A stretch of DNA of 64,000 bases from Novosphingobium sp. 9U (lineage in GTDB: Bacteria > Pseudomonadota > Alphaproteobacteria > Sphingomonadales > Sphingomonadaceae): assembly GCF_902506425.1 (NCBI RefSeq), contig NZ_LR732469.1:248001-312000 (forward strand), in the 5' to 3' direction. Of this stretch, positions 46,573 to 54,546 are shown one piece after another. How positions within the stretch are numbered: the stretch's first letter is position 1; every line of letters starts with the position of its first letter. The translations under genes were made by a program, and so were the position numbers. The notes under the pieces are model-generated. The model saw nothing but the letters and a program-made list of their open reading frames with translations. It ran no database searches and was not told where the DNA came from.

Positions 46573-48165
46573 TTGCCCTCATCATTGAACATTCACAAGG
46601 TGGCGAGCTTGAGAAAGGCTTTCGAAATCACGCTGTTAGCTTCCGGAGTAGGCTTGGCAGCGCTCCTGCTGCTTGTTGGTGCGAAGTTTGGACAGACCGC
46701 CCCGCCCACCGCCATAATGGAGGCGGCGGTAGGGCAAGCATCGGTCAACAGCGGCGAGCGTCGCGCAGCGCCACAGTCAGCCGGCACGCACGTTACTCTG
46801 CCCGAGCTGGTTTACTTCGGCGCCGCCTGGCAGATGCTGAGCAAGCACACGGGCATGCCACCGATCTCATTGGGTGGCGGCTACACGAATGCAAGGGTAG
46901 AGCGAACTGGCGACGGCCTGTTCTTCGCCGGGACCATTGATCGCGTGGACAGCACCGGCAAGGTCACCGATGTGATCCTCGCCTTTGCTGGCGCCCAGGG
47001 TATAGGCGATCTCATCCAGGGTGAGGCGCTGGCCAGTGGCCGCGTGCTCGCAGAGCCGAAGTGGGCCGATGTGCTGTTCGAGCGCATCTGGCGCGATCCC
47101 CGCTATGCGCATGCCCGCATCCATGTGGCCGGCCATTCGCTGGGTGCCGGCTATGCGCTTTTCGTTGGCATGGAAGCGGTTGCCGCGCATGGACGTGAGG
47201 CGGTCAACTCACGCCTCAGCATAACCGTGTTTGGAGTGCCGAACTGGGGACCGCAATCGGCGCGGTACTTCGGTGTTGATCCGCACGCGCTCGACCGCGT
47301 CGTGACCGGGTACACGGCCCTGAACGATCCCGTGATCACGAATGGCGGCACCGACCGGACGGGTGTGTCCGTGTTCCTGCCCGCCTTCAAGGGTCTGACA
47401 GGCTTCAAATCGATGTTCAACGCCGTCGCCGCGCACTGGCCGACCACATACATGACGAGCCTTGGTCTACCTTCCTGGCTGTCGCCACAACAGAAGGCCG
47501 CTTATGTCAAAACAGTGGGCACGCTGTTAATCAGCGGCAACAGTGTCGATCCAAATTCCGGGCCGCCTGGCCGCCTGCCGATCATCGTGGAGGGCAGCGC
47601 CCAGGACGATTCGATCAGCGGCACAGCGGGCGACGACGTCATCGCAGGCCGAGGCGGACGTGACCTGCTGAGAGTCGGCGCGGGGCATGACCGGTTCCTC
47701 TATCTGGAAGCATTGGACAGCGGCCCAGCTCCGGAGAGGGCAGACCGTATCCTCGACTTCGCACCTGGCGACCGGATCGGCCTTTCGCGTATGGACGCTG
47801 ACAGCTCCAGCCCAGGCCGGCAGTCCTTCACCCTCATCCCGGCGCGGCCATTCACCGCACCCCGGCAATTGGCGGTCTGGTCAGATGGCAAAGCGACCTG
47901 GATTGCGGGCAATGTAGACAGGGATAATGCCGCCGATTTCCTGATCCAGCTGGATGGCGACCATCACCTCTCAGCGGCCGACTTCGTCCTCGAGCCGCTC
48001 GCCACCAACAGCGCCTTGGCTCGTTACATCGACGGCAAAGCTGCCGTCCTGAAGTCGCACAGACCCGTCCGGCAGAACTCTATGGTTGCACGGGCAGCTT
48101 GGCCAAGTCCCTGGCTAGAGCCTTGTCGAAGTCGTTGCCCAGTCCGATCGAACCGAGCATGTTGA
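46573..48165 (+). CDS. Lipase-like alpha/beta-hydrolase with RTX repeats
   Basis: Up to 530 aa. One hydrophobic segment near the N-terminus (about 20-38), then a class-3-lipase-like domain with HVAGHSLGAGYALF (nucleophile Ser), a central region, and a C-terminal RTX segment (SISGTAGDDVIAGRGGRD and GAGHDRF, Ca-binding nonapeptide-like) followed by a serralysin-type C-terminal domain. This combination suggests type I secretion or surface exposure. The start is uncertain: TTG 46573 is the first option, GTG 46603 or TTG 46612 (AAGGTGG upstream) are alternatives. Its last ~30 residues overlap the convergent serine hydrolase gene by 86 bases. Confidence 0.82.
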   Translation: MPSSLNIHKVASLRKAFEITLLASGVGLAALLLLVGAKFGQTAPPTAIMEAAVGQASVNSGERRAAPQSAGTHVTLPELVYFGAAWQMLSKHTGMPPISLGGGYTNARVERTGDGLFFAGTIDRVDSTGKVTDVILAFAGAQGIGDLIQGEALASGRVLAEPKWADVLFERIWRDPRYAHARIHVAGHSLGAGYALFVGMEAVAAHGREAVNSRLSITVFGVPNWGPQSARYFGVDPHALDRVVTGYTALNDPVITNGGTDRTGVSVFLPAFKGLTGFKSMFNAVAAHWPTTYMTSLGLPSWLSPQQKAAYVKTVGTLLISGNSVDPNSGPPGRLPIIVEGSAQDDSISGTAGDDVIAGRGGRDLLRVGAGHDRFLYLEALDSGPAPERADRILDFAPGDRIGLSRMDADSSSPGRQSFTLIPARPFTAPRQLAVWSDGKATWIAGNVDRDNAADFLIQLDGDHHLSAADFVLEPLATNSALARYIDGKAAVLKSHRPVRQNSMVARAAWPSPWLEPCRSRCPVRSNRAC

Positions 48166-49435
48166 TCATCATCGTCGCACGAACGTGACGCACCGGATCG
48201 ACCCAGGCCCGGGTGCCAGCAGCACCGTCCCAGCCATACGCACCCTTGCCTCTGCCGAACCCATCGACGTCCTTGAGGACAACAAAGCCACCCGCACCGA
48301 ACCCCGCCGGCTCGCCAGGGGCGACCGGACCAGGGCCGTTCATGAACACGCCCGCCGGCATCAGGTTGGACTTGGCCAATCGCGCGGTGTTGATGCTCAG
48401 AATGCGCTTGCTGCCCAGACGCCCGTCGTTGAGCAACATGCGCAAGAAACGATCGTAATCGCGCGCTGTGCTCACCAGCCCGGCGCCGCCATAAGGGAAG
48501 CTGGGCGCATTCAGGTAGACCGAAGTCGCAGGGCGATCCAACAGTGCGATCGTGTCGTTCACCGGCGTGGTGCTACCAGGCCATGTCTTCTCCAGCGCAG
48601 CACGCGGGCCGTAACTGGCTGCGAGACGCTTGGCTTGAGTCGCGTCCACTCGCCATCCCGTTGAGGTCATGGCCAGCGGCGTCAGCAGTCGCCGCTGCAC
48701 GAAGTCGGCAAGGGGCATGCGGCTCGCTTTCTCGATCACAGCCGCAAGCACGTCTAGTCCCATCGAGTAGTTCCACGCCGTGCCGGGATCAGCCACAAGC
48801 GGCGAGCGTCCTGCGCGACCAGCGAATTCGGCCAGGTTCGGCGCACGCAATGGCCGCATCCTCGACTCCAGCACACGGTTGAACTGGAAAGGCGTCACAC
48901 CCTGCGCCTGCAATTGCTGCTGCGCCGGCGTATTCGGCAGAATGGCGTAGTTCAGGCCAGAGGTATGCGTCATCAGATCGCGGATGGTGATCGTTCGCTT
49001 CGCCGGCCGCGTGATCATGGCCTTGGCGGGGTCAACGAGGACCTTGGCCGTTGCGAACTCCGGGAAGAAGTCGCTGACCGGCTGATCGAGGCGCAGCTTG
49101 CCCTCGTCGATCAGGATCATCGCGGCGATGCCGGTGATCGGCTTGGTCATGGAGTAGATGCGCCAGAGCGTGTCCGGGCTGGCCGGCATGCTGCCGCCGA
49201 AGGCCGTCTTGCCGGCTACGATCCAGGTGGGCGGCTCGTCGCCGACGCCGACTGCGATGGCGATGCCGGGTACCTTGCCATCGCGCACAACCGGATCGAC
49301 GAAGGCTCGCACCGCCGGAAAGGCCACTGCTGCCTTGCGCGTGGTCGCCGGTGCAGGAACAGGAGCCCGCGCGTCCGCGCCAGTGGGGGCGAGGCCCAGC
49401 AGCGCGATCGCGGCATGCATCGGGAAGCGCTTCAT
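48080..49435 (-). CDS. Serine hydrolase, class C beta-lactamase / esterase family
   Basis: 451-aa exported protein: signal peptide, then a beta-lactamase-fold domain with Ser-x-x-Lys in YSMTKP (Ser 95, Lys 98), Tyr-Ser-x in NYSMG and a C-terminal GWDGAAG replacing Lys-Thr-Gly. This pattern fits the EstB/serine esterase and D-aminopeptidase-like group rather than a true AmpC. I start at ATG 49435, with GGAG nearby. It follows the mannitol-dehydrogenase-family gene by 41 bases and may share its transcript. Confidence 0.9.
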   Translation of the reverse strand: MKRFPMHAAIALLGLAPTGADARAPVPAPATTRKAAVAFPAVRAFVDPVVRDGKVPGIAIAVGVGDEPPTWIVAGKTAFGGSMPASPDTLWRIYSMTKPITGIAAMILIDEGKLRLDQPVSDFFPEFATAKVLVDPAKAMITRPAKRTITIRDLMTHTSGLNYAILPNTPAQQQLQAQGVTPFQFNRVLESRMRPLRAPNLAEFAGRAGRSPLVADPGTAWNYSMGLDVLAAVIEKASRMPLADFVQRRLLTPLAMTSTGWRVDATQAKRLAASYGPRAALEKTWPGSTTPVNDTIALLDRPATSVYLNAPSFPYGGAGLVSTARDYDRFLRMLLNDGRLGSKRILSINTARLAKSNLMPAGVFMNGPGPVAPGEPAGFGAGGFVVLKDVDGFGRGKGAYGWDGAAGTRAWVDPVRHVRATMMINMLGSIGLGNDFDKALARDLAKLPVQP

Positions 49436-49476
49436 TACCTTCGCTCCCGGCTTGAGTTTCTTCACCAGAGGATGGA

Positions 49477-50958
49477 TCACGAAGTGAATGCCTTTCGTGC
49501 CTGAGCTAGTGTTACTCGGGCGCCGGACGCATAGAGCGACCGGAGCCAGCGCTCCACCGGACCGATCAGGCCTGGGCTCTCGCCCAAGTTCCCGAACAAC
49601 GGCTTGATCGACAGAAGCGCGCGAGGATCAGCGCCGCCCTCCAGCGCCTTTTCCCGCAGCAATCCGGCAAGCGGATGCGCGACCACCAGCGGCTGCCCCG
49701 CTTCATCTTCGCCACGTACCCGGCGCAGCCATGCCGCCAGCGCGAGGGCAAGCAACTCGATCGGCGCACCAGCCGCCAGGCGATCGCGGATCGGGTCGAG
49801 CAGCAGATTGATCGGCGCATCCGCATTGACCCGGTCGACGGTGTCTTTGATCCGTCGGTTCGAGAACCGAACGACGAGTTCCGCCTTGTAAGCGGTCAGG
49901 TCAACGCCGGGCAGCGGTGGCAGCGTGGGCCCGGTCTCCCGGTCCATCGACGCCTGCATGTAGCTGCGGATGTCCTGATCGGGCAGCGCCTCGTCGATGT
50001 GCGTGTAGCCGGCGAGACGGCCGAGCCCCGCTATGCCGAGATGGCTGGCGTTGAGCAGGCGCAGCTTCATCATCTCATAGGGCTGGACGTCATCGACGAA
50101 CTGGGCGCCGACCCGCTCCCACTCGGGCCGTCCGGCGACGAAGGCGTCCTCGACCACCCATCGCGTGTACCGCTCCGACACGACCGGCCAACGATCCGCG
50201 ATGCCGTAGGACGAGGCGAGATCGGCGATATCCTCGGGCATGGTAACCGGGGTGATGCGGTCCACCATGGTCCTGGGAAAGCTCGCCTCGCGCGTGATCC
50301 AGTCGGCGAGCGAAGGATCCTGCCGCTCTGCCACTGCCAGCACGGCGCGGCAGAGCACCGCGCCATTGTGCTGGATGTTGTCGCAACTCAGTGCGGTGAA
50401 TGCAGGTAAGCCGCGCTGTTTGCGACAACGATAGCTCTCGACCAGGATGCCGATCGCCGATCGCGGTCCGTGGGGATGAGCCAAATGATGGACAATCGCC
50501 GGATGGTTGAAGTCCAGTTGCCGGGTGGCGGGGTTCAGGCAGTACCCGTTTTCGGTGCTGGTCAGGCTCACGATCCGGACAGCGCGATCGGTGATCGCCT
50601 CGATCACTGCACGCGAACTTTCGCCGGCAAATATGACACGGCAGAGCGAGCCGATCACGGTGGCCGTCTCGCTCTCATCCTGCCGCTCGATCAGCGGGCA
50701 GAGACCGTCTTGCGGCTCCAGGGCTTCGAGCATGCGGCGATCGGCGGGCAGCAGGCCTACGCCGATGATGCCCCACTCAGTTGCCGTGGGCTCGGCGTTC
50801 ATCAGCGCACAGGTGTAGCGTGCCATGTGCGCGCGGTGAAAGCCGCCAAGCCCCAGGTGCACGATCCCTGCCGCCACACGCGCGGGAACGTAGGCCGGGC
50901 GACCGATATCTGCTCGGAGCGCCGGGAGGCTGGCGCGCGATAGCGGCAGAGGGCTCAC
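49477..50958 (-). CDS. Mannitol dehydrogenase-family oxidoreductase
   Basis: 493-aa polyol-specific long-chain dehydrogenase. N-terminal NAD-binding domain with VHLGLGGFHRAHMARY, SLTSTENGYC, and C-terminal domain with VVEDAF, KLRLLNASHLGIAGLG and YMQASMDRE around the catalytic Lys. Family members oxidise mannitol or reduce fructuronate (UxuB); the ROK kinase next door suggests mannitol to fructose followed by phosphorylation. Starts at GTG 50958 overlapping the kinase stop (GTGA). Confidence 0.9.
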   Translation of the reverse strand: MSPLPLSRASLPALRADIGRPAYVPARVAAGIVHLGLGGFHRAHMARYTCALMNAEPTATEWGIIGVGLLPADRRMLEALEPQDGLCPLIERQDESETATVIGSLCRVIFAGESSRAVIEAITDRAVRIVSLTSTENGYCLNPATRQLDFNHPAIVHHLAHPHGPRSAIGILVESYRCRKQRGLPAFTALSCDNIQHNGAVLCRAVLAVAERQDPSLADWITREASFPRTMVDRITPVTMPEDIADLASSYGIADRWPVVSERYTRWVVEDAFVAGRPEWERVGAQFVDDVQPYEMMKLRLLNASHLGIAGLGRLAGYTHIDEALPDQDIRSYMQASMDRETGPTLPPLPGVDLTAYKAELVVRFSNRRIKDTVDRVNADAPINLLLDPIRDRLAAGAPIELLALALAAWLRRVRGEDEAGQPLVVAHPLAGLLREKALEGGADPRALLSIKPLFGNLGESPGLIGPVERWLRSLYASGARVTLAQARKAFTS

Positions 50959-51842
50959 GATCGGAACGCCTGTTCGCCCAGCACGATCGCGCCGAGCGGG
51001 CCTGCCCTGTCCCCCAGCGCCGGGGGAACGACATAGGTGTCCGCTTGCGCGACTTCCGGCATCGACACGTAGCCTGTCAGGCTCCTGGTCATCGCGGTGC
51101 GTACGCGTGGAAACAGACGCGCAGTCCCCACCATGACGCCGCCCATGATGATCCGGCGTGGCACGCCCGTCAGCACCAGGGTGTGAAGAAGCTGCCCTAA
51201 TGCATGCGCCACTCCATCCCACACCGTGTTGTCGGGCGCGAGCGTCTGCCCTGGCTCGCCAACGCGGGCGGCGATCGCTGGAGCGGAAGCGAGCCCCTCC
51301 AGGCAGTCGCCGTGGAACGGACACACGCCGGGCCACAGGTCGCCCACCTGTCGAGCCGGGCGGATGTGACCAAACTCGCTATGCGTCAGCCCGTCGACCG
51401 GCTCGCCGCCTGCAACCAGACCCACCCCGATGCCGTTGCCCACCGTGACGTAAGCCAAGTCCTGCAAACCCTGTGCAGCGCCCCAACGCGCTTCCGCCAG
51501 CGCCGCGCCGACGACAGCCGTGTGGAAACCGGTCGGAACCTGCGTGCGCCTGGCCAAGCGCCCAGCGACATCGGTGTTCGTCCAGCCCGGCTTGGGCGTC
51601 GCGGTGATGTGACCATAGGACGCGGAACCGCAATCGATCGAGATCGGGCCGAAACTGGCGATGCCCAACGCGACAAAGCCATGCCAGCGATCTAGTACCG
51701 CCTCGATCGCGCTCAAGGTCTGGTTCGGGTCGGTGGTCGGTATCTGGACCTCGTCCACGACTGCATAGGGTCCGCGCGCCAGGATGCAATCGATCTTGGT
51801 ACCGCCCAGTTCGATGCCGGCGATCAGCGGCGCATCGATTAT
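50955..51842 (-). CDS. ROK-family sugar kinase (fructokinase-like) with non-canonical start
   Basis: 295 aa. N-terminal ATP site LIAGIELGGTKIDCILA, FGPI and GHITATPKPGW, TVGNGIGVGLVAGG, and the zinc-binding region GHIRPARQVGDLWPGVCPFHGDCLEG (given in two parts: HSEFGHIRPAR; CPFHGDC) identify a bacterial fructokinase-type ROK kinase. Remarkably, no ATG, GTG or TTG lies in frame between the beta-glucosidase stop and the glycine motif; the first GTG (51758) would delete the ATP site. AAGGAG at 51854-51849 is followed after six bases by ATA (51842) and then ATC, giving [M]IDAPLIAG, which matches the usual N-terminus. I therefore propose AUA or AUC initiation. Confidence 0.8.
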   Translation of the reverse strand: MIDAPLIAGIELGGTKIDCILARGPYAVVDEVQIPTTDPNQTLSAIEAVLDRWHGFVALGIASFGPISIDCGSASYGHITATPKPGWTNTDVAGRLARRTQVPTGFHTAVVGAALAEARWGAAQGLQDLAYVTVGNGIGVGLVAGGEPVDGLTHSEFGHIRPARQVGDLWPGVCPFHGDCLEGLASAPAIAARVGEPGQTLAPDNTVWDGVAHALGQLLHTLVLTGVPRRIIMGGVMVGTARLFPRVRTAMTRSLTGYVSMPEVAQADTYVVPPALGDRAGPLGAIVLGEQAFRS

Positions 51843-51875
51843 CGAACTCTCCTTCCGCCAGCAGGCCTTGCGCGC

Positions 51876-53189
51876 TCAGATCGTTCCGGTACGCGCAATG
51901 CGGCCGAGGTAATGTGCGCTGGGCTTGGGCGTTCGCACGAACGTCTCGCGGTCCACCGACACCAGGCCGAACTGCTGGGTGTAGCCTGCGGTCCACTCGA
52001 AATTGTCCAATAGCGACCAGTGGATGTAGCCACGCAAGTCGACCCATTCGGCGAGGCAGTCGCGCACCTCTTCCAGACATTCGTCGATGAAGTTGATGCG
52101 TTCACGGTCATCGTGCGTGGAGATGCCGCTTTCGGTGATGATCACCGGCTTGCCGCTCTGCTTCGCGGCGTAGCGGACCATGGCCCCGAGTGCGGGCGGG
52201 TAATACTCATAGCCCGCGTCTGTCTTGCGCGCACCTTCGGGTACCGGCATCGGTCCCGCCGGCCCGATCAGGATGCGGGTGTATGTCTGCACGCCCACAA
52301 AGTCTGCCGGCACGCCAGGGTCTAACCACGCACCATAAAGCTTGTGCACAAGGTCCGCCTTGAGCGCCTCTCCGCCTGTCACCGCTTGCAACTCCTGCAT
52401 CGACAAGCTGATGCCGACCGGGAAATCGCCCGGTCCAGCCTTTATCGCCGCATAAGCCAGAGCATGGGCCTTGCGCATCGGCGGCTCGATCTCGTCAGCA
52501 TCGGCAAAGATCCAGGACGAGAAGCGATCCGAGCCACACGCCTTGGCCGACGCTGCGAGCATCTGCGCCACGCGCGGCCGTATCTTGGCTGCCGCTGGAA
52601 CGAGCACAGGGATCAGCCGCGGCGCGTTCATCTCGTTGAAGGTGGTTGCGCCGGAGATCAGGTTGCCCAGCTTTGCCGTCGTGCGATCGGCGAAGCGGGC
52701 GAACAGTTCGGGGCCATCCACCGCCAGGAACCCGCCGCGTGCGGCGTACCAGCGCGGCACGGTGAAGTGGTTATAGGTGACGATGGGCGCGAGACCGTGC
52801 GCGTGGCACGCCTCCAGCATACGACGATAATGGTCGAGCGTTGCTTGCGAGAACACGCCGGGCTCGGGCTCGATCCGCGCCCATTCGACTCCGAAGCGAT
52901 GCGTGTTGAAGCCCAGCGATGCTGCGATCCGGATGTCCTCCTCGAAGCGGTCGTAACTATCGCAGGCATCGCCGGCAGGTTCGCGAAACAACGTGCCGGG
53001 CACATGCTCGTTCAGCCAGCTGTCCGAGTTGACGTTGTTGCCCTCGCTCTGGTGCGCGGAGATGGCGGTGCCCCAATAGAAGCCCTTGGGTGCCTTCATT
53101 GCCTTACGCGCAGGAGCCGCTGCAGCGATCCCGGCGCGGCCTGCCAAGGCGGCTGCCGCTGCAGCTTTGATGATGGTGCGCCTTTGCAT
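51876..53189 (-). CDS. Exported beta-glucosidase, GH1
   Basis: 437 aa. Twin-arginine-like signal (MQRRTIIKAAAAAALAG) directs export. The GH1 barrel shows the acid/base Glu 186 in TTFNEMN and nucleophile Glu 353 in IITESG, with ISAHQSEGNN near the N-terminus and HWSLLDNFEWTAGY near the C-terminus. AAGGAG six bases before ATG 53189 defines the start; the frame is open to 53450 without support. First gene of a leftward operon with ROK kinase, mannitol-dehydrogenase-family enzyme and serine hydrolase; it would release glucose or related sugars in the periplasm. Confidence 0.93.
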   Translation of the reverse strand: MQRRTIIKAAAAAALAGRAGIAAAAPARKAMKAPKGFYWGTAISAHQSEGNNVNSDSWLNEHVPGTLFREPAGDACDSYDRFEEDIRIAASLGFNTHRFGVEWARIEPEPGVFSQATLDHYRRMLEACHAHGLAPIVTYNHFTVPRWYAARGGFLAVDGPELFARFADRTTAKLGNLISGATTFNEMNAPRLIPVLVPAAAKIRPRVAQMLAASAKACGSDRFSSWIFADADEIEPPMRKAHALAYAAIKAGPGDFPVGISLSMQELQAVTGGEALKADLVHKLYGAWLDPGVPADFVGVQTYTRILIGPAGPMPVPEGARKTDAGYEYYPPALGAMVRYAAKQSGKPVIITESGISTHDDRERINFIDECLEEVRDCLAEWVDLRGYIHWSLLDNFEWTAGYTQQFGLVSVDRETFVRTPKPSAHYLGRIARTGTI

Positions 53190-53462: not shown

Positions 53463-53846
53463 ATGACCAGGCTCAAGATCGCGGTGATCCGCAGCGTTCT
53501 GCTATCCGGCGCCACCTCCATGGCCCTGCTGGCGCACTTGGCACCGGCGCAGACGTTGTCGGCGACTGCGCAGCCGGAGCCGGTCGCACCCGACAATGGC
53601 GGCATCGCAAGCAACAGCACCGGCGCGCAGGATATCGTCGTCACCGCGCAGAAGCGAAGCGAACGCCTGCAGGACGTGCCGGCATCGGTCGCGGTGCTCA
53701 GCACGCAGGACTTGACCAAGCAAGACGCGGTGCGCTTCGAGGATTACGCCACCCGAGTTCCCGGCCTGACCTTCACCTCGGTTCGCACCGGGCAGGCGCA
53801 AGTCACCTTACGCGGCATCACTACGGGCGCTGCGCAGTCGACCTGA
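53463..53846 (+). pseudogene. TonB-dependent receptor fragment (signal, TonB box, start of plug)
   Basis: 127 residues: signal peptide (LAPAQT), linker, TonB box and plug start AQDIVVTAQKRSERLQDVPAS, up to FTSVRTGQAQVTLRGITTG. It then stops exactly where the plug should continue (usually a VGxYxDDVP motif); receptors are 700-900 aa. The sequence after the break is lldD-like, so this is a deletion product. The receptor would have served the divergent beta-glucosidase operon. Confidence 0.9.
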
Positions 53847-53854
53847 TCCACGGC

Positions 53855-54546
53855 CTCGCACTTACCGTGGATACGCCTGTCGCTGGAATCGGGAGCGCGA
53901 CGGGGTGAGCGGCCTGTCCTTGCCTCCCATCTTACCCTGAAATTCCTGCTCAGCTTCGCTCTCCACCCCACCTGATCTCTGCCCGCGCTGACAGGATCGA
54001 AATTCGATCTGGCGAACGTCAGCCACAAGGTGGATGCGCTGGCGTCAGGTCCCATAAGCCTCTTCGATTATATGGGGGCAGTTCGATCGTTCTGTTACCT
54101 GGCGCGACGTCGAATGGCTTGAGCGCGAGTGGAACGGTCCGCTCGCCATCAAGGGCGTGATGGGGGATGCTCGCGGGTCGATAAAGTCGGGTGCGACCGG
54201 CGTGATGATCTCCAATCATGGTGGACGCCAGTTGAACGGCGCACCCGCACCCGCCCATCAGATTGCAGCTATCCGCGAAGCCGTTGGTGATGCACCGGAC
54301 GTTATCTGCGATGGCGGGATCCGGCGCGGTTCCGACATCGTCAAGGCAATCGCGTTAGGCGCAATGGCCTGTTCGATCGGACGTCCCTACCTCTACGGCC
54401 TTCCAGCCGGTGGAGAGGCCGGGTTAGACCGCGTGCTGACACTGCTGAGCGAAGAGCTCGAAGGCACCATGGCGCTCGCAGGGGTGAACGACAGCGCCTC
54501 TTTGGCTCGTCGCCACGTGCGGGAGCGAGGGCGATCCAAAGGATGA
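53855..54546 (+). pseudogene. lldD: Decayed L-lactate dehydrogenase / FMN alpha-hydroxyacid dehydrogenase (lldD) 3' part
   Basis: Conserved LldD blocks appear in order but in shifting frames: LALTVDTPVAG (53855-), NRERDGVSGLSLPP (53887-), TLKFLLSFALHPT then a TGA at 53973-53975 where Trp is expected, then SKFDLANVSHKVDALASGPI, and after another shift at the G5 run 54074-54078, QFDRSVTWRDVEWLEREWNG (54079-) to the C-terminal GGIRRGSDIVKAIALGA. The catalytic SNHGGRQL is intact, but three frameshifts and one nonsense codon, plus loss of the first half, make it non-functional. The last 130 codons still read open. Confidence 0.85.

What the first reader, a model, noticed from the sequence alone, without database searches (positions are those of the whole stretch)
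51759..51878. ROK kinase with no standard start codon: probable AUA/AUC initiation, in frame with the preceding stop
Between the beta-glucosidase TGA (51878-51876) and GTG 51758 there is no in-frame ATG, GTG or TTG, yet this stretch encodes the conserved ATP-binding IAGIELGGTK of the kinase. AAGGAG at 51854-51849 is spaced six bases from ATA at 51842-51840 (and nine from ATC), so the N-terminus [M]IDAPLIAG would be normal. The kinase frame is also continuous with the beta-glucosidase frame across its TGA, so readthrough would give a fusion. Options are a rare AUA/AUC start, readthrough, or a recent ATG-to-ATA mutation lowering kinase level. Seen directly; interpretation is inference.
Basis: partly seen in the sequence, partly recalled or inferred. 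Interest (0 to 1): 0.8.

Follow-up and report, generated by a model that had tools for sequence, protein, structure and literature searches.

The report
Dead duplicate of a sugar kinase
The kinase gene that seems to start at an unusual codon is most likely a recently broken spare copy: it has lost its start codon and key active-site residues, while an intact copy sits elsewhere in the same genome, so no unusual translation start is needed to explain it.

Summary
The kinase frame (51875-50955, minus strand) has no ATG, GTG or TTG before GTG 51758, and ATA 51842-51840 stands six bases after AAGGAG. The same genome (probably Sphingomonas, from named hits) has a second copy of this locus 2.04 Mb away. 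There the kinase has ATG where the window has ATA, and 107 of 119 homologous proteins have Met in that column. So ATG most likely became ATA.

The gene is not a working kinase waiting for an AUA start. Four residues found in 119 of 119 homologues are changed or missing: the catalytic Asp, the phosphate-binding Thr, and two Gly, one by in-frame deletion. The paralogue departs at 0 of 124 conserved columns, the window copy at 6. The two loci decay in complement: the window keeps the beta-glucosidase and the mannitol-dehydrogenase motifs but has a dead kinase and a truncated TonB receptor; the other copy keeps kinase and receptor but has lost the glucosidase and both dehydrogenase motifs. Best reading: a recent pseudogene. 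Weak AUA initiation, or translation as a coupling leader, remains possible but would not make an active kinase.

The parts
50955..51842 (-). ROK-family (fructokinase-like) pseudogene, frame open from the ATA to TGA 50957-50955
   Evidence: PF00480 3.7e-48; start codon lost and four invariant residues changed or missing
51840..51842 (-). ATA where the paralogue has ATG
51849..51854 (-). AAGGAG, surviving ribosome-binding site
   Evidence: the paralogue has AAAGGGGA at the aligned place
51756..51758 (-). internal GTG (residue 29 counted from the ATA) from which a gene caller starts a 267-aa protein that lacks the N-terminal motif
   Evidence: (P0001)
51516..51518 (-). codon 109, Ala in place of the catalytic Asp (D in 119 of 119 homologues)
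   Evidence: role of the Asp: PMC5458393, PMC10031466
51435..51437 (-). codon 136, Asn in place of the Thr of GTG (T in 119 of 119)
   Evidence: equivalent to PsNagK T132 by spacing (my comparison)
51282..51284 (-). codon 187, Ala in place of the Gly of LASGPA (G in 119 of 119)
51143..51144 (-). junction of an in-frame one-codon deletion in the GGG loop (placing within the run is arbitrary)
51876..53189 (-). GH1 beta-glucosidase, full length, N-terminus signal-like by eye; upstream gene
   Evidence: PF00232 3.9e-56; the Glu of FNEMN and of ITESG conserved in 120 of 120 homologues
49477..50958 (-). mannitol-dehydrogenase-family gene; its GTG start overlaps the kinase TGA (GTGA)
   Evidence: database start P0121 begins at this GTG; motifs HLGLGGFHR and KLRLLNASH kept
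48080..49480 (-). beta-lactamase-family (PF00144) gene, nearly full Pfam match here, a fragment in the paralogous locus
46573..48165 (+). lipase-like gene (label mine, from a GHSLG motif seen by eye), 65% identical to one at the paralogous locus
53463..53846 (+). N-terminal stump (127 aa) of a TonB-dependent receptor; the paralogous locus has a 763-aa receptor
   Evidence: PF07715

Best explanation
The locus (TonB receptor, GH1 beta-glucosidase, ROK kinase, mannitol-type dehydrogenase, beta-lactamase-family gene, lipase-like gene) exists twice in this genome. Each copy has lost some genes whose partner survives in the other. In the window copy the ROK kinase is a recent pseudogene: its ATG became ATA, and its catalytic Asp, phosphate-binding Thr and two invariant Gly are changed or gone. 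The reading frame is still open because the loss is recent; in addition its end overlaps the start of the dehydrogenase gene, so translation through it may still help express that gene. Shown: sequence state, paralogue, invariant-site losses, complementary decay. Inferred: loss of enzyme activity, order of events, coupling, and whether the second copy arose by duplication or by acquisition.
For: Paralogue at G000:C1:2336507-2337496, 77% identical DNA, with ATG at the aligned base. Met in that column in 107 of 119 homologues. A109, N136, A187 and the missing Gly replace residues found in 119 of 119 and in 28 of 28 whole-genome relatives, the paralogue among them. 6 of 124 conserved columns departed against 0 of 124 in the paralogue; 2 of 118 other homologues depart at 5 or more. 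Longest of 60 terminal branches, 0.356 against 0.304 for the next and 0.057 for the paralogue. In a characterised ROK kinase the Asp-to-Asn mutant has no detectable activity and the Thr-to-Val mutant about a tenth of kcat (PMC10031466), with the same 27-residue spacing. Complementary losses: in the other copy GH1 is down to two scraps, the beta-lactamase-family gene is a fragment and both dehydrogenase motifs are changed; in the window the receptor is cut to 127 aa. Two ROK genes and two Mannitol_dh_C genes in the genome. A neutral walk to five hits at conserved codons takes a median 17 substitutions, and the frame is still open in 1993 of 3000 runs.
Against: The frame is open for 295 codons and the deletion is in frame. 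Over its whole branch omega is 0.051, not different from the rest and far from 1 (LRT 30.9), so most of the divergence happened under constraint; a relaxed phase is not resolved, and dS is saturated. Two other homologues depart at as many conserved columns (P0061 8, P0100 6), cause not examined. Of 119 homologues 12 have no Met in the column, and most were seen as proteins, not DNA. The cluster of the window's own protein counts 2 member sequences (P0001), so a second near-identical sequence may exist that I could not see. No expression, activity or second-strain data.
Confidence: 0.88

Rival explanations
1. Genuine AUA (or AUC) initiation of a functional kinase, possibly as a level control.
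For: Good SD at six bases and a conserved N-terminus.
Against: The product lacks the catalytic Asp and three other invariant residues. The paralogue has ATG, and nothing seen shows the ATA conserved elsewhere. No close relative of the window copy was found among 195 genus genomes or the 120 listed proteins.
Confidence: 0.03
2. Retained pseudokinase: the open frame is translated (from AUA weakly, from GTG 51758, or by readthrough) because it couples translation to the overlapping dehydrogenase start, or because the protein binds sugar without phosphorylating it. This overlaps with the best explanation, which allows coupling.
For: GTGA overlap of kinase stop and dehydrogenase start; frame open and deletion in frame; ExGH (SEFGH) and the Cys/His cluster kept.
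Against: A recent neutral pseudogene would also be open in about two of three cases. The window's dehydrogenase itself departs at 8 of 166 conserved columns, so it may not be under strong selection either.
Confidence: 0.12
3. Readthrough of the GH1 TGA giving a beta-glucosidase-kinase fusion.
For: Frames in phase.
Against: The phase is inherited: the paralogue has it too, with its own ATG after the TGA. The GH1 N-terminus looks like a signal (by eye), so it would be exported, away from a kinase that needs ATP (inference).
Confidence: 0.01
4. Sequencing or assembly error at the ATA.
For: Draft assembly in 75 contigs; one strain only.
Against: An error at one base would not explain three further substitutions at invariant residues and an in-frame deletion.
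Confidence: 0.03

Closest known systems
ROK-family putative fructokinases of the PDB (3ohr, 1xc3, 3lm9; Bacillus subtilis YdhR is recalled, not from a call)
   Same: Aligned over residues 4-294 of 295, E 2.4e-64 for 3ohr; glycine-rich N-terminal motif, ExGH and the CPxHGDC cluster present
   Different: Catalytic Asp, Thr of GTG, one Gly of GGG and Gly of SGPA altered or missing; no ordinary start codon
Duplicated pseudogenes of bacteria (review PMC11078800, passages seen)
   Same: Second intact copy, disabling changes, decay spread over the neighbourhood
   Different: No frameshift or premature stop: start loss and active-site loss only, so a gene caller reports a shortened gene (P0001)
Complementary loss after duplication (duplication-degeneration-complementation; term recalled)
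   Same: For GH1, kinase, receptor and the beta-lactamase-family gene one copy is whole and the other broken; for the dehydrogenase one copy keeps the motifs
   Different: Here it runs gene by gene along two copies of one operon-like locus; whether the copies arose by duplication or by acquisition is not shown

Membership tests
ROK sugar kinase, active | N-terminal nucleotide-binding motif (DxGxT; E-L-G-G-T-K in this subfamily) | tested here: met
   residues 11-16 counted from the ATA; motif list from PMC5458393 (passages)
ROK sugar kinase, active | strictly conserved catalytic Asp in the active-site loop | tested here: not met
   Ala at 109; D in 119 of 119 homologues and 28 of 28
ROK sugar kinase, active | ExGH sugar-contact motif | tested here: met
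   SEFGH
ROK sugar kinase, active | zinc motif (subfamily form CPxHGDC; the paper's form is CxCGxxGCx(E/D)) | tested here: met
   CPFHGDC, as CPYHGDC in 3ohr
ROK sugar kinase, active | phosphate-binding Thr of GTG and intact GGG loop | tested here: not met
   Asn 136 and a missing Gly
Duplicated pseudogene | intact second copy in the genome | tested here: met
Duplicated pseudogene | disabling changes | tested here: met
   start lost, catalytic residue lost
Duplicated pseudogene | relaxed selection after the loss | tested here: inconclusive
   excess at conserved columns and longest branch but branch omega 0.051
Duplicated pseudogene | no functional product | not testable with these tools
   no expression or assay data
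AUA-initiated gene | no standard start in the conserved frame | tested here: met
AUA-initiated gene | non-standard start conserved in relatives | tested here: not met
   ATG in the paralogue; Met in the column in 107 of 119 proteins
AUA-initiated gene | product begins at the AUA | not testable with these tools
   needs proteomics or a reporter

The most novel reading that the evidence does not exclude
A catalytically dead ROK pseudokinase frame is kept open and translated, weakly from an AUA start or from the internal GTG, because ribosomes leaving its TGA start the overlapping dehydrogenase gene (GTGA): a pseudogene retained as a translational leader in a pair of operons that complement each other.
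Probability: 0.1. Interest if true: 0.5.

Novelty: new member of a known kind. Interest (0 to 1): 0.25.

Why it matters
It shows how a start-codon loss hides a pseudogene: with no frameshift or stop, gene calling moves the start inward and reports a shortened kinase. It also gives a tidy case of two copies of one operon-like locus sharing out their surviving genes, caught while one gene is still decaying.

Tried and rejected
AUA initiation as the main account was dropped once the paralogue showed ATG and the active-site residues proved lost. Readthrough was dropped because the in-phase arrangement is shared by the paralogue, which has its own ATG. Looking for near relatives that keep the ATA found none: in 195 genus genomes (own included) the best DNA match outside the own genome was 126 bits, and among the 120 proteins listed (7999 candidates scored) none but the window's own GTG-started protein was above 81% identical. 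A branch model of selection could not isolate the phase after the loss, as dS is saturated. One search was a useless alignment (loci not turned to one strand) and was replaced; rows L003 (same locus as L001), L026 (partial) and L030 (motif not mapped) were left out. The paper on initiation at all 64 codons (Hecht 2017) is not held, so no rate for AUA is quoted; passages of PMC11497404 gave nothing on AUA starts. Listings only were seen (duplicated operons; AUA/ATA starts; Sphingomonas, ROK, pseudogene: no paper), and nothing from them is used. Locus L034 was fetched and not used.

Full report
What is there. On the minus strand the GH1 beta-glucosidase ends at TGA 51878-51876. The frame that follows is open to TGA 50957-50955 and is a ROK-family kinase (PF00480, 3.7e-48). 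Its first ATG, GTG or TTG is GTG 51758-51756, the 40th codon after the TGA and residue 29 counted from the ATA. AAGGAG 51854-51849 is followed after six bases by ATA 51842-51840. IAGIELGGTK lies between the ATA and the GTG.

Is it more than chance? A run of 39 codons without a start-like codon has a probability of about 0.05 at the rate seen in the rest of the frame (20 of 267), so it is only mildly odd by itself. The meaning comes from comparison.

The second copy. The window's genome (4.64 Mb, 75 contigs) has one other similar stretch, at C1:2336507-2337496, 77% identical. It has ATG where the window has ATA: the alignment around it reads GATA in the window and GATG in the paralogue, with ribosome-binding site and following codons conserved. 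Of 119 homologous proteins (P0002-P0120, all listed except the window's own P0001), 107 have Met in that column; 11 have another letter and one a gap. These were seen as protein predictions. The in-phase arrangement with the GH1 stop is present in the paralogue too, so it is inherited and says nothing for readthrough.

The kinase is dead by sequence. In an alignment with those 119, four places that hold one residue in 119 of 119 are altered in the window: Asp to Ala at 109, Thr to Asn at 136, Gly to Ala at 187, and one missing Gly in the GGG loop by an in-frame deletion. At columns at least 97% conserved (124 columns, 118 sequences) the window copy departs at 6, the paralogue at 0; among the other 118 the median is 0, the maximum 8, and 2 reach 5 or more. 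The 28 other rows (the paralogue among them) have Asp, Thr, Gly and a GGG run, 28 of 28 each. The solved putative fructokinase 3ohr aligns over nearly the full length and has Asp and Thr at those places. ROK kinases are described as having a strictly conserved catalytic Asp (PMC5458393, passages). In Plesiomonas NagK the mutant D105N had no detectable activity, and T132V fell from a kcat of 202 to 18.4 (PMC10031466, passages); the window has Asn, not Val, at the second place. The spacing of 27 residues between the two is the same in the window (109, 136), which is my own comparison.

The neighbourhood decays in complement. The second locus (L033) has an intact 763-aa TonB receptor, an intact kinase, a dehydrogenase gene and a lipase-like gene (label mine). 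Its GH1 is reduced to the last 29 residues (tblastn) and an N-terminal scrap that is clear by eye in translation but weak as a DNA match (E 0.31), and the beta-lactamase-family gene to a C-terminal fragment. The window has a full-length GH1 (the Glu of FNEMN and of ITESG conserved in 120 of 120), a nearly complete beta-lactamase-family match and the lipase-like gene, but the receptor is cut to 127 aa (53463-53846) and the kinase is dead. The GH1 departs at 4 of 109 conserved columns; three of the four are shared with its 89% identical relative P0241, and one, Trp for Gly at 382, is its own. The dehydrogenases also differ. The paralogue's has Glu for the first Gly of the glycine-rich motif (HIELGGFHR) and Ile for Asn in KxxxxNxxH (KLRLLIASH); PMC4022671 gives HxGVGxFxR and KxxxxNxxH as motifs of this family (passages). 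The window's keeps both (HLGLGGFHR, KLRLLNASH) but departs at 8 of 166 conserved columns, where 7 of 118 homologues reach 5 or more, so it too may be failing. The genome has two ROK genes and two Mannitol_dh_C genes.

Origin of the pair. In the 11 loci of named relatives that I checked (of 67 fetched), no match to the other genes of the locus lies within the up to 6 kb held on each side of the ROK homologue, so the ancestral order rests on the two copies in this genome. Contig lengths that recur for kinase and dehydrogenase (13861, 26885 and 6110 bases) suggest that the two genes neighbour each other elsewhere. In the tree the paralogue groups with the metagenomic P0006 (support 95), and the window copy falls next to them without support (29) inside a clade of nine (support 91). 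So the two copies may have parted before the paralogue's lineage split from P0006, and a second acquired locus is as possible as a duplication.

When. The window kinase has the longest terminal branch of 60 sequences (0.356; next 0.304; paralogue 0.057). Over its branch in a codon model of seven sequences omega is 0.051, not different from the rest (p 0.32) and far from 1 (LRT 30.9). dS is saturated, so this says only that most divergence predates the loss. In a neutral simulation from the paralogue's sequence, five hits at conserved codons need a median of 17 substitutions (1.9%), and the frame is still open in 1993 of 3000 runs. An open frame is thus what a recent pseudogene would show.

How it works, as far as it does. 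The kinase stop overlaps the dehydrogenase start (GTGA), and the database protein P0121 begins at this GTG. In the paralogue a TTGA overlap is possible, but its database protein P0126 begins at a GTG two bases after the stop. Close coupling of translation is therefore likely (inference). It gives a possible reason to keep the frame open, and it is the part of the case that stays interesting. Whether any ribosome starts at the ATA is not known; that near-cognate starts work weakly in E. coli is recalled (source not held). The gene caller's product begins at GTG 51758 (P0001, 267 aa) and lacks the N-terminal motif. Its cluster counts 2 member sequences, so another near-identical sequence may exist that I could not see.

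Verdict. A real observation with an ordinary cause: start-codon loss in a decaying second copy. The organism is put in Sphingomonas from the best named hits; the species was not sought.

Noticed in passing
window 53463-54546: A TonB receptor stump (127 aa) is followed by a 162-residue frame (54058-54546) matching only the C-terminal part of FMN-dependent dehydrogenase (positions 198-349 of 350), as if a deletion had removed what lay between.
   Followed up: partly
L033 14450-14582: In the paralogous locus GH1 survives only as an N-terminal signal-like scrap and its last 29 residues, a near-complete internal deletion.
   Followed up: yes
L033 15518-16999: The paralogue's mannitol-type dehydrogenase has both family motifs changed (HIELGGFHR, KLRLLIASH), so it too looks inactive.
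   Followed up: yes
window 49477-50958: The window's dehydrogenase keeps the motifs but departs at 8 of 166 conserved columns; 7 of 118 homologues reach 5 or more.
   Followed up: partly
window 52044-52046: The window GH1 has Trp where 120 of 120 homologues have Gly (residue 382 from ATG 53189), its 89% identical relative P0241 included.
   Followed up: partly
P0061, P0100: Two homologous kinases from other sources depart at 8 and 6 conserved columns; perhaps sequence errors or other decaying copies.
   Followed up: no
window 51826-51837: An out-of-frame ATG just after the ATA opens a three-codon frame ending in TGA; probably meaningless.
   Followed up: no
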